From Datnioides undecimradiatus (Eukaryota > Chordata > Actinopteri > Lobotiformes > Datnioididae), in contig WARS01000046.1 of assembly GCA_008933995.1 (NCBI GenBank), positions 1,860,001 to 1,924,000 of the forward strand: a stretch of DNA of 64,000 nucleotides, read 5' to 3'. Shown here one piece after another: positions 27,201 to 33,200 of the stretch; positions within the stretch are counted from its first letter, which is position 1; each line of letters begins with the position of its first letter. The notes beneath the pieces were generated by a model. That model saw only the letters and a program-made list of their open reading frames with translations, did no database searches and was not told where the DNA came from. The position numbers were made by a program, and so were the translations under genes.

Positions 27201-30200
27201 TTGGCAGATGGACCACACCTAGCAATAATACACCAAACTAACACCGAGAACTGCGATTGAATTCCAAATGGAGGCTGTCTCTTTTCATTCTCTGTAACAC
27301 ATTCCCTGTTTTGCAAAAAGAGATCAGAAGGCTCTGGTAATGAAAGGCCAACAGGGGTCAAAGAAAGGAGGGAAATTATCTGTGAGTGCTCTGCTGCTGC
27401 ATCCACAGCCTCCTTTCTCCTCAACCTCCGCTCTCTTGATTTACGCTAAAGAGCTCGAGCCCCCCCTCTCCCCACAGCTCTGCTCCAGCACACCTGGCAT
27501 GTTTATTAGAGCAGGTAAGTAATCTCTGATCGGGCAGACACTTCGTGGTGCTACATGGGTGTCATCGACAGCCGTGGAGCCGCTCCGGTTTGGCTCTGTG
27601 TGGTCTGCAAAGCCCCGGCGGACGCTCACATTCACTCATGCTGCTGCGCTCTAACAGAGTCATTTCATGTGTCATTTAATCTCATCACCCAGCACTTCTA
27701 GATCCAGAGGGGCCGGTCAGGACATGGGAAGGGATGGCATCACCCCAGTTTGGATGAAATGTCAAGCCCTTTGCTCTTGATATGTTTTTGGGGAAAAACT
27801 AAGAGAAAACAGTGCTTAATTCTTGGTTAGCTCCTAGCATCGAATTTGGACAAACAAACCAATACATAGGTAAAATAAATGCTTGTTAGCGGTAGCGTTT
27901 CTTCTTTCTTTCATCACTGTTCCTGTTCGATACACGTGGTTTGAAAGCATTCCTCAATTATTATTAAACTCAACTATTATTATTAGTCAGCCCTTGACAG
28001 ACCACTGATATCCAGGAACAGGGATGACAAAGCTATGGTAGCATGAATCATTGTGCAGTACAGCTGCAGCAACTAGAGAAACCCGAGCACTACACAGCAT
28101 TACGGCGCTATTTGAGAGATTCATTGGATGCAAGGTAGCCCAAATTGTGTGCTGTGCTGGATGTCTCTGGCTGCTCCTGTACTGTCATGCACAACATAGC
28201 CTTCTGGCGCAGACGGTTCCTTAAGAGTCTTATTTTGTATATGGCTTGGGTCCTCTCCACTGGCGATTCAGGCCTGCATTGTTATTAGCCTGGGTAGCAG
28301 ATTTGTTTTGTGCTCAACGGTGCAACATTGTTGGCTGGCCTCGTTTGGCAAGACAACGTGATGCTGGCCAGAATACAAACTCTCTGGTAGCAAGGCTAAT
28401 AAATCACCCTACTCTTCCTTTCCACCCGCGAGGACCCATTTCTCTCTATTGTTGCTCTCAGATTTGTGTTAATTGACTGTCATACACGTTCAATAACACG
28501 TTCTTTTCATTTGTATCTGTGTGTTGCTAGAGTGCTGACCATGAAAAATGGGTAGGTCCATCAGTTTGTTCATCCATCATGTTGTCAGTGTGCATGACAG
28601 ACTGCCAAACGAAAGGGTTGAACTTGCGGCACTTTCCCTTGAAGTGACGCCCATTTCTCGATTGCCATAAAAGCTTCATTTATAGCGTGTAAAGCATTTA
28701 GTTTAAAAGTCCATGGCAGGTAATGCATTGAAGGGAGATATTAAGCTAATGGTAATCTATTTCAGTTTTCCACTTCACCTCATATTGTGCAAATGGATAT
28801 TACAAAATACATTTATTTCTTTGTAGACTGCCTTTGGATTGTAAATTAAGCTTTCACCTCACTGTAACTCAACATATTCTCTTCCCCTCAGCCCGTCTGG
28901 AGACAGTCAATTAGCTTGTCACAGATGTCTCTGAACTTTAAATTATGGCAATCTTGAAATAGACATCCACCGGTGCTGTCACCTTGTGCACATGAGTCAA
29001 ATGTTTTGCCTTGCCTCTGAAGACTACTTTATGTGCAAGCGTGCAAGCACTTTCAAGGGTTAGTGTCTGTTTCTCTTTTGCTTATGCTAACCATTATCCC
29101 TTTTTTGCTTTTTATGCCAAAAACTCTATCCCTATTGTGCAGCTGAAAATGTAATCCTGCAAAAAGATACGTACACATACATATATTATCGTTAAATGTT
29201 GCTAATTAAAAGGTAGGACTGAGCTCTGATATTTGATCCAGTTTGCTGAATCTAAATGAAGGGATTTGAAAACCCACACGCTGGCAGAAAACTCACTTTG
29301 TGGTTTGGGTGTGCTGCTCTGTTTTCTCTGGGTTTGGTCTCTAACATAAAGTATTTTTAAGGTAATTGACACGAGGAAATGTCCTGAAATCAGTTTCGAT
29401 TTCAGAGTGTTCACATGCACTACTGTTGGGCAAAGCTGTTGTAGGTGATTCAAGGATTATGTATCTTTTGGTTTATGTTGCTCACACAACGACTGACGGC
29501 GTTCCTCTGTTTCACATATTACACATCGCACTTTGATGGACTGTTATGAAGTAAACGTAAAGCACACTGAGCACAATCTTCATCTCATTATCCAGATGAT
29601 TTGAAGGACAGGGCATTCAATATGAACATGAGGATCAATATGTGAGATGGTACTTAGCAAATGAGCCTGCGATGACTCCTTTCTTCAGGACCCTGGAAGA
29701 ATTGATTAGTGTGCTCTTTTCCATGCATGGGCCATGATAAATAAGATTAGCCATTGATATGAAAGTCAACATTTAGGTGAATTACTTAGTCATGGTTTAG
29801 TGTAATGGCTCTGTCGGAAGACACTGTTTCATTTTGTGAAGCCATGAAGACAAATTAAAGAGCAGCCACCAAAATTATCCTTGTGTTTCAAAGAACGTTG
29901 TATTTTGCACTGGCCCATCACACTGCTTTTAAAGTAATCAAATTACATAGATAATGGATTCAAACAGGTTAAGTTATTTATCAAGTAAACGTGACACACA
30001 TTTGATGGTTAGAGCATTTGAATATTGCGAAGTGTATAGCACTTTTTATGATATGTATTACTTTGGTCTGGTGTATTTATACTTAATTCTTAAAAATAAA
30101 AAAAGAAATAGTAAACTGATGATAACATTAATTATTAGTTTCTGGTAACACTAGTGAACAGTTGTAGATTAAGTGTCAGGTTACAGTCTCGGGGCAGTGG

Positions 30201-33200
30201 ATGACTGGTCATCAAGGTTTAAAGTAACTCAGTACAGTTACTCCAGTGCTGAACTGAAGCACAATTTTTAGCATCTTGTGCTTGGTATTTAAATTTTTCC
30301 ATGTATTGTACATTAAATTTTCTAATATCTTGAGTAACTTTGTGGATTGATTATTAATCTCATGTTATTTTATTTCAATATTCGTTTTAATTATGATTAC
30401 CTATTACTATTATTTTGGTATAATGATGACTTTTATTGTTTTATTATTTTTCTTCTTAATACTTTAATCTTTTGCGTTGGTACATTCTGAACGCGAACCA
30501 TTATGGATTGTAGTGACACATAAATTACTTAAAATTTACTTAGTTCAATTTGACGCGGATACGCCTGGCGTGATGACGCCATAGGTTTCCGTACGATAGG
30601 TAAACGACTAACCGTTGGATTAAAGGTATTAAAAGCTAACGCTATATCTGTTTATACTCACGGTACCGTTTACCGTGGATAAATTTGCCGTTAAACGTTA
30701 CCTTTACGTCGATGTTAGGCGTGTAACTGTATCAAAAACAGGACTTGTTTGGATTACAGGTAAACTCCAATCAATAAGAAAATCAAAGATGGCGCGTAAT
30801 GAATGTAATAGCTCGACTAACCACTGGAGCGCTGTTTAGCTACATTGCTAATATCGGCAACACAATGTAACTTGTAAGATAGCGTATTAAATTATCCCTC
30901 AAATCATTCCTAACTTCATTTTACCCTTCAGTGGTTGTTTGAGTTGCTTTGGAAAGGTGTTGGTGAAACTTTATGGTGAATTTTTAAGCGGTTTGCGGTG
31001 CTTTTTAATTATATTACATTATTTTGAGAGCTTTTCTAGCTACCTCCAGTGATGCAAATGTGAAAGTGAACAAAGTTTCTGGTAGCATTACTGTACACCT
31101 ATTTTTAGCTAGGTGTAGCTTACCTAAATTGGCAGCAGTGTGGGGTCGAGGCATCATTAAATTCTCATTAATTGTTGCTGAAGCTGTTTACTGTACCTGT
31201 CCCCTGATGGTTTTGTTTATCAGTATTTGCACCAAAGGCCTACAAAGGGGGCTTTACTTAAAAGCAACGACATCCACAAAAACAAGAACAGCTCATCAGG
31301 GCTCATCTAAAGCTAAATAATGAGTATTATGGTATAACTTTGGTAGTACACACATATCAGTCAGTACAGTGTGTGCGCTCAGTGAGGTGTCAAAGCCAGC
31401 AATCTAGCAAGACACAAGGGATGATTCTGGTGTCTAGCTAAGTAGCCATGACTTGACATAGGAGCCGTGAGCCAATTTATCTTCCAATACATGCCACGTT
31501 CATGAAAGACACAGCTTATTGTATGCACATACAAAAACCATGCACAGCAACACAGCCACACAAACGTCTCTGTCTTTGTTTGAAAGACAAATGCACTCAC
31601 AGTAACTGTTTGGGATACAGTGCTTACAACTAGAGGGGCACCAAACCAAAGGTCACAGTTCCTGGCAGTGATGTGTCAGCATGACAGCAGGCCTGAAATA
31701 TAGGCTGGCTCTCTCTCTCTTTGCCCCCTCCCTCACTCCCAGCTGTTGCTGGATACTCTTGCCATTTTTCTTTTGATCGAACTCTGTTTCCTTTTTCGTC
31801 TGCCTCATACAAGCCATTTGGGATAGACTGGGTAGCCAAAAGAGAATTAGCTTGGGGTCGTGTTCAGGGGACAGTTGGGAGTTCCCTGTAGGCCAGTTTA
31901 AATGTGACCCCACAAGCAAACAAACAAATTAACACTGACAACTGGACAAGAAAGAGGATAGCATACATGTATTGCATATTGGATAAACACTGCAGTATGC
32001 GTCACACTGGTTAGCACAGTCCTGGTCCTAGGCTTAGAACCAGCTGTGTCTATGACAAATTTAAATATTGTTTGTCACCTCAAAAAACACCCAAATGGTA
32101 GACTCTGTGCTCTAAATTAACTCGAAGCGAGAGTCGAATGTCTGTTTTAATAATAGAAATGTCCGTTCATGAGAATGAGAAATACGACTGAGAAATGGAT
32201 TGATGACTATGGGGCTAAAATGCCTTTACATTTTTACCTTTAATCCACATTTTCAACTGAACAAAAAAAACCCCTTTCAGATTAAAGTTTGCCTTCTAAT
32301 GGATAATCATGACCTGCAAATTCTCATTTGTGAGTCTTTAAAATCAATTGATTTGAAAGTGAACTCATACTATTACTGCCATAGGCCTGTTCCACGTTTG
32401 CAGTGTCTATCTAGTATCATGAAACCTGATCAAAATTGATGGTAGAAAGATGGTTTGGATGTCACCTCTTATGGTACCTTCTTTTTGTTTTTCTGCCGCT
32501 AGAGGTTGATTAAAAAGGTAAGTAGAATATTCTCTGATCACATCAGTGGTGGAGAGGAAATCACACCATCATCCGTTTTTGCTCGACTGTTTCCTCACAT
32601 TTCCTCGGCCTTTTTGCTTCTGTTTCACGGTTATTCTTGTTTGTCACAAGAATGGGCAAGCTGTCTAATGAGTGTGGTATTGTACATGTTTGTGTTTGTT
32701 GGTTTGTTTGATTGTGCGTGTACTTTTGTGTGTTTCCCTTCCTCTTTCCCTGTCTGTTTCCTGCTTGCACTTGGAATGGAGGTCCGAAACTGAGGAAACG
32801 ATTTACTCCCATGCATTGTAAAGCACACAGTGGTCTAAAGCAGAGGAAGCTCTGTACCTATGAAATAGGGATTACTAACTTGGACTGCAGATGCAATATG
32901 TCAACATTAAGAGCAACATTAACACAGTATATGATGACATGATGATAACCTGCGACCTGCGTATTTTCTGACAGGCGGGTCAAGGAGGTGGACACCGAAC
33001 CCTGCTCTACGGTCATGCCATCCTCCTTCGCCACTCCTTCAGTAATATGGTGAGTGCCAACAAAGAAATTAGATAACCATCCAAGAAATATACACATGGA
33101 CATGTATATAAAGTGTATGTAGACATTATACTTATTTGAATATCAGTTAAAAACAAACCCCAAATGCATTAGATATACAACTGGACAAAGCAAATGTAGA

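What the first reader, a model, noticed from the sequence alone, without database searches (positions are those of the whole stretch)
28531..32517. Two in-frame microexons (21 and 15 nt) add a RyR2-like 12-residue loop to RyR3
Between exons 3 and 6 two tiny exons encode SADHEKW and RLIKK. As I recall the families, RyR2 has VDVEKWKFMMKT at exactly this point, while canonical mammalian RyR1 and RyR3 lack it. Both exons are multiples of three and phase 0, so either can be skipped without breaking the frame. This suggests the insert is ancestral to at least RyR2 and RyR3, and that fish RYR3 can switch this surface loop of the N-terminal gating-ring domain by splicing.
Basis: partly seen in the sequence, partly recalled or inferred. 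Interest (0 to 1): 0.8.

Follow-up and report, generated by a model that had tools for sequence, protein, structure and literature searches.

The report
Shared tiny exons in ryanodine receptors
A fish calcium-channel gene (RyR3) carries two tiny exons that could be dropped without breaking the protein; a matching pair is known from the heart channel RyR2, and the larger one also seems to sit in this fish's RyR1 genes, so a feature thought special to RyR2 looks old and shared.

Summary
In detail: 28531-28551 (SADHEKW) and 32503-32517 (RLIKK) are AG/GT-bounded, phase 0, between exon 3 and the QGGGHR exon of a fish RyR3. They align with human RyR2 92-98 and 99-103. RyR2 exon 4 is a published 7-residue cassette (cardiac-type against islet/brain-type), and RyR2 95-104 is a dynamic helix that a review says RyR1 and RyR3 lack.

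Of six RyR genes found in this genome, five have a 21-nt phase-0 candidate at the same place: both RyR3, both RyR1 (AVDLDKW twice, three synonymous differences) and one RyR2. The 15-nt exon was found only in the two RyR3 genes.

Not shown: any transcript. The switch is inferred from frame, the RyR2 precedent and TGCATG 40-42 nt downstream of exon 4 in both RyR3 genes. Weak points: exon 4 of the second RyR3 is no better than chance by peptide; exon 5 resembles RyR2's only in place, size and phase. Verdict: real; a new variant of a known kind.

The parts
25878..25982 (+). RyR3 exon 3 (105 nt, phase 0), ends NTGQNSEG, donor gtgagt
28531..28551 (+). 21-nt microexon (exon 4), SADHEKW, phase 0, ctag / gtaggt
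   Evidence: aligns with RyR2 92-98
28591..28596 (+). TGCATG, RBFOX-type element 40 nt downstream of exon 4 (motif meaning recalled); C466 has TGCATG at +42
   Evidence: 7 of 127 ordinary donors have TGCATG within 60 nt
32503..32517 (+). 15-nt microexon (exon 5), RLIKK, phase 0, ctag / gtaagt; donor score above 99% of 119 ordinary exons
   Evidence: aligns with RyR2 99-103
32975..33049 (+). next ordinary exon (75 nt), [25 protein letters not shown]

Best explanation
The two stretches are real cassette microexons of a fish RyR3, matching in position exons 4 and 5 of RyR2. Included together they lengthen the surface loop of N-terminal subdomain A by 12 residues and supply a short amphipathic segment like the dynamic alpha2 helix of RyR2; skipped, they leave a short loop like that of mammalian RyR3. 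The 21-nt exon was probably present before RyR1, RyR2 and RyR3 separated; the 15-nt exon at least before RyR2 and RyR3 separated, later lost from this fish's RyR2. Exon 4 is probably spliced tissue-specifically, as in RyR2, and in RyR3 an RBFOX-type site just downstream probably promotes inclusion. Shown: presence, frame, splice signals, position, candidates in paralogues. Inferred: use in mRNA, tissue control, helix formation in RyR3, the order of gains and losses.
For: Gap-free alignment of the 12 residues with RyR2 92-103 and a gap against RyR3 9c1e. Boundaries: the RyR2 exon 3 deletion is residues 57-91 (PMC7570887) and exon 4 has 7 residues, so exon 4 is 92-98, exactly the residues matched by SADHEKW. 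A 21-nt phase-0 candidate in the same interval in 5 of the 6 RyR genes found. RyR1 pair: 7 of 7 residues and 18 of 21 bases identical; exon plus donor is the best blastn match between the two introns (29 nt, E 4.8e-5; the others E 0.18-0.72). Second RyR3: RLIRK with a 98th-percentile donor, and TGCATG at +42 against +40. Trees. Published RyR2 exon 4 splicing.
Against: No transcript evidence. The two RyR3 introns show no blastn match at either microexon (best hits E 0.35, elsewhere). TRGPDRW of C466 is weak by peptide: best score 12, reached by 9 of 1531 open control segments, though 0 of those 9 has adequate splice sites. The RyR1 candidate of C493 has a very poor acceptor (-3.5, 2nd percentile) and would fail that same splice filter. 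Exon 5 was not found in the RyR1 or RyR2 genes and its likeness to KFMMK (7) is below at least 15 of 2112 segments scoring 9-11. TGCATG was chosen after looking; it is not near the RyR1 or RyR2 candidates, and 15 of 119 ordinary exons have one within 300 nt. TGC in the last 25 nt before the acceptor (a neural-microexon mark, recalled) does not discriminate: 5 of 7 against 54 of 119. The tissue figure of the review PMC8553518 shows exon 75; exon 4 is given in its text.
Confidence: 0.75

Rival explanations
1. The exons are real but constitutive in fish RyR3: always included, so the gene simply has the long RyR2-type loop and no switch exists.
For: Exon 5 has very strong donors in both RyR3 genes (98th-99th percentile of 119 ordinary exons); exon 4 sites are within the ordinary range.
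Against: Exon 4 sites are middling (acceptor 27th-28th, donor 38th-41st percentile in RyR3), and the exon 5 acceptor of C466 is only 48th; RyR2 exon 4 is skipped in islets and brain; exons this small usually need help to be recognised (recalled); TGCATG at +40/+42.
Confidence: 0.15
2. The window exons are relics: once used, now skipped in fish RyR3 as presumably in mammals, and drifting.
For: Exon 4 differs at 6 of 7 residues between the two RyR3 genes; no blastn match between their introns at the exons; the RyR3 chain in the PDB lacks the insert.
Against: Both copies stay open and keep length and AG/GT sites; exon 5 differs by one K/R change; the RyR1 candidates keep all seven residues.
Confidence: 0.1
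3. Chance: two AG..GT segments in a long intron that happen to be in frame.
For: Such segments are many: 21 AG-21-GT (12 open) and 25 AG-15-GT (16 open) in this interval.
Against: Only 3 segments have adequate splice scores and two are these; paralogues carry candidates at the same place; best non-exon match to QVDVEKW among 2144 segments is 16 against 24 for the window.
Confidence: 0.02

Closest known systems
RyR2 exon 4 (islet-type against cardiac-type RyR2; Takasawa et al. 2010 not seen, passages of reviews PMC8553518, PMC9033130, PMC12109991 seen)
   Same: Same place, seven-residue yield and in-frame; ends in W; [quoted passage not shown]
   Different: Here it lies in RyR3 (and RyR1); no splicing data; SADHEKW against QVDVEKW.
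RyR2 exon 5 (residues 99-103, KFMMK; 15 nt deduced from numbering and recall)
   Same: Same place; same length and phase if the recalled size is right.
   Different: RLIKK has little sequence likeness (score 7); not found in this fish's RyR2 genes.
RyR2 dynamic alpha2 helix, residues 95-104 (the review's reference 161; seen only through section 10 of PMC7570887)
   Same: The window microexons encode residues aligned with it; HEKWRLIKKA has hydrophobic moment 0.38 against 0.24 for VEKWKFMMKT.
   Different: The review says isoforms 1 and 3 lack it; fish RyR3 could encode it, fish RyR1 only its first part.
RyR1 ASI/ASII small cassette exons (recalled, no call)
   Same: Tiny in-frame cassettes of a RyR gene.
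   Different: Elsewhere in the protein.

Membership tests
RyR3 gene | Closest to RyR3 among RyR1-3 | tested here: met
   203-residue piece: RyR3 9c1e 357 bits, best RyR2 350.7, best RyR1 319.5, although the insert favours RyR2; tree groups window, C466 and mammalian RyR3 at 100/99
RyR2-type exon 4/5 microexon pair | 21-nt and 15-nt phase-0 exons between exon 3 and the QGGGHR exon | tested here: met
   (sequence signals only, no RNA)
RyR2-type exon 4/5 microexon pair | Boundaries fall on RyR2 residues 92-98 and 99-103 | tested here: met
   alignment with exon 3 ending at 91 and 7-residue exon 4; the exon 5 end at 103 is recalled
RyR2-type exon 4/5 microexon pair | Sequence likeness of exon 4 to QVDVEKW | tested here: met
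   window scores 24; best non-exon segment of 2144 scores 16
RyR2-type exon 4/5 microexon pair | Sequence likeness of exon 5 to KFMMK | tested here: inconclusive
   score 7; at least 15 of 2112 segments score 9-11
Regulated alternative microexon | Included in some tissues and skipped in others | not testable with these tools
   no RNA data; only the mammalian RyR2 precedent
RBFOX-controlled exon | TGCATG shortly downstream, conserved between copies | tested here: inconclusive
   +40 and +42 in the two RyR3 genes, absent within 300 nt of the RyR1 and RyR2 candidates; 7 of 127 ordinary donors have one within 60 nt
RyR2 alpha2 helix | Dynamic helix at residues 95-104 | not tested
   only a hydrophobic moment; a spliced protein does not fit the stated input rule of structure prediction, so none was sent

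The most novel reading that the evidence does not exclude
A splice-switchable loop in the N-terminal gating-ring domain is an ancestral vertebrate RyR device, present before RyR1, RyR2 and RyR3 separated and still usable in fish skeletal-muscle RyR1 and in RyR3; mammalian RYR1 or RYR3 introns might even hold unannotated remnants or rarely used copies.
Probability: 0.5. Interest if true: 0.68.

Novelty: new variant of a known kind. Interest (0 to 1): 0.55.

Why it matters
A review describes RyR2's alpha2 segment as lacking in RyR1 and RyR3, and as the piece that turns into a beta strand and largely rescues the fold when patients lack exon 3 (PMC7570887 section 10). If that segment is an old, spliceable module of all three receptors, then (inference) loop length in the gating ring can be set per tissue in more than the heart channel, and RyR2 of islets and brain, which reviews say lacks exon 4, should be rescued less well after exon 3 deletion. 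That links two literatures, islet-type RyR2 splicing and exon 3 deletion, in one test. It also tells annotators to look for 21-nt exons after exon 3 of vertebrate RYR1 and RYR3.

Tried and rejected
Chance segments: made unlikely. RyR2 misnamed as RyR3: rejected. Exon 5 missed in the RyR1 and RyR2 genes through odd length, donor or acceptor: relaxed searches gave nothing convincing. TGC upstream of acceptors: not discriminating (5 of 7 against 54 of 119). Intron conservation: the RyR1 pair matches at the microexon, the RyR3 pair does not match at either. RyR loci of other animals as contaminants in genome contigs (prokaryote) and viral contigs: 593 and 53 pattern matches, no relative, as might be expected of those collections. 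Insect RyR: the two PDB chains that passed 1e-90 (5y9v, 6lqk) match a recalled insect piece without insert, gap-free, so these two give no support for a pre-vertebrate origin. Literature: nine searches; the rows listed (for example 20 of 50, 15 of 83, 15 of 94, 12 of 26; 0 for RYR1 with microexons) showed no title on RyR1 or RyR3 microexons; most subscription papers are not held, so this does not prove absence. C337 is placed with RyR2 by elimination and on a long branch. A genome-wide pattern count for the RyR1 exon could not be run. On rechecking, I lowered the best explanation from 0.8 to 0.75, because the RyR3 introns show no match at the exons and the review's tissue figure shows exon 75, and the constitutive rival from 0.2 to 0.15, because the exon 5 acceptor of C466 is only average.
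Full report
What was checked. The two stretches are at the stated coordinates, with AG acceptors, GT donors, lengths of 21 and 15 nt and phase 0. Exon 3 ends at 25982 and the next ordinary exon begins at 32975. All four splice combinations keep the frame. In the 7,007 nt scanned, of all open segments of 6-60 nt in multiples of three with acceptor score >=0 and donor score >=1 (weights recalled), 3 were found and two are these exons.

What gene it is. The window holds exons matching a recalled RyR1 N-terminus up to about residue 1006, and later open frames match RyR Pfam families. 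The best solved chain for a 203-residue spliced piece is RyR3. The window gene and C466 group with mammalian RyR3 at 100/99 in a 206-column tree (the pair itself 88/89), and with each other at 100/100 in a 992-column tree with a recalled RyR1. In the held genome (581 Mb, 497 contigs) the search showed RyR matches on six contigs, counts being lower bounds by the tool's own note: two RyR1 (C493, C463), one clear RyR2 (C15), one long-branched RyR2-like gene (C337, by elimination) and two RyR3 (window on C307, and C466). [quoted passage not shown]

Relation to RyR2. The spliced window piece with both microexons aligns without a gap over 202 residues to RyR2 (4jkq), SADHEKWRLIKK lying on residues 92-103 (QVDVEKWKFMMK); RyR3 9c1e shows an 11-residue gap there, and the RyR1 chains covering the whole stretch span 12 fewer residues (60 of 82 sequences listed, 5 alignments shown). 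The RyR2 exon 3 deletion removes residues 57-91 (PMC7570887, section 10) and exon 4 encodes seven residues (PMC8553518 and PMC9033130, passages), so RyR2 exon 4 is 92-98, exactly the residues of the 21-nt exon. That exon 5 is 99-103 and 15 nt is deduced with recall.

Paralogues. In the interval between exon 3 and the QGGGHR exon, a phase-0 AG-21-GT candidate for exon 4 is found in five of six genes: C493 AVDLDKW, C463 AVDLDKW, C15 HVDVEIW, C466 TRGPDRW, window SADHEKW; C337, with an interval of 453 nt, has none. The RyR1 pair shares 7 of 7 residues and 18 of 21 bases, all differences synonymous, and the exon with its donor is the best blastn match between the two introns (29 nt, E 4.8e-5). The same test on the RyR3 pair gave no match at either microexon (best E 0.35, elsewhere). 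The 15-nt exon is found in two of six genes, both RyR3 (RLIKK, RLIRK); relaxed searches in the others found nothing convincing.

Controls. Of 2144 AG-21-GT segments on both strands of 264 kb, the four best against QVDVEKW are the candidates of C493, C463, C15 and the window (28, 28, 27, 24); five others score 10-16, above C466 at 8. The best score of TRGPDRW against the other four peptides is 12; of 2137 control segments (1531 open), 9 reach 12 and none of the 9 has adequate splice sites, while 11 open ones have such sites. The C493 candidate would itself fail that splice filter (acceptor -3.5). One control (SNNREKW, minus strand, no adequate sites) reaches 24 when SADHEKW is among the templates. 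For the 15-nt exon, RLIRK scores 20 against RLIKK and 1 of 2106 controls scores 18 (no adequate sites); against KFMMK the exon scores 7, below at least 15 of 2112 segments. So exon 5 homology between RyR2 and RyR3 rests on place, size and phase, and exon 4 of C466 on place, splice sites and flank rather than peptide.

Regulation. Against 119 ordinary exons of the six genes, exon 4 has middling sites in RyR3 (acceptor 27th-28th, donor 38th-41st percentile) and a very poor acceptor in C493 (2nd); exon 5 has very strong donors (98th-99th) with acceptors at the 81st (window) and 48th (C466) percentile. TGCATG lies at +40 (window) and +42 (C466) from exon 4; 7 of 127 ordinary donors have one within 60 nt and 15 of 119 within 300 nt. 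The motif was picked after inspection and is not near the RyR1 or RyR2 candidates. No RNA data were available, so tissue control is inference from RyR2: reviews say the type lacking exons 4 and 75 is in islets, cerebrum, cerebellum, pituitary and adrenal gland, and the cardiac type in atrium, ventricle and kidney; the tissue figure in PMC8553518 shows exon 75, and the primary paper was not seen.

Structure and function. The review gives RyR2 residues 95-104 as a dynamic surface helix absent from the shorter loops of RyR1 and RyR3, which unwinds into a beta strand and replaces beta4 when exon 3 is deleted. Exons 4 and 5 encode 92-103. Fish RyR3 could therefore encode a RyR2-like helix; fish RyR1, with exon 4 only, just its first part. 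Helix formation in RyR3 is inferred; only a hydrophobic moment was computed.

Verdict. The reading that the insert is older than RyR2 is well supported and probably too narrow, since an exon 4 is in both RyR1 genes too. The switch is likely but unproved. Two solved insect RyR N-termini show no insert, which fits an origin in the chordate or vertebrate line; this was not tested further.

Noticed in passing
window 36375-36474: The 100-nt exon appears to end at a GC donor (GTAG|GCAAGT), a GC-AG intron; the same exon in C466, C15 and C463 has GT. My gene model missed it and drew a false 16-nt exon.
   Followed up: partly
G000 C337:5240117-5250491: A second RyR2-like gene on a long branch (end branch 0.54 and 0.44 in the two trees), with a short interval after exon 3 and no microexon candidate.
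   Followed up: partly
window 92-1834, minus strand: A 580-aa open frame without a Pfam match at 1e-3 or a PDB match at 0.01. It resembles a formin-1 N-terminal region as recalled; FMN1 neighbours RYR3 in human (recalled), which would fit RyR3 synteny.
   Followed up: partly
window 58878-59633: Long open frame matching the RyR junctional solenoid (PF21119, E 8.6e-72), so the gene continues beyond the N-terminus.
   Followed up: no
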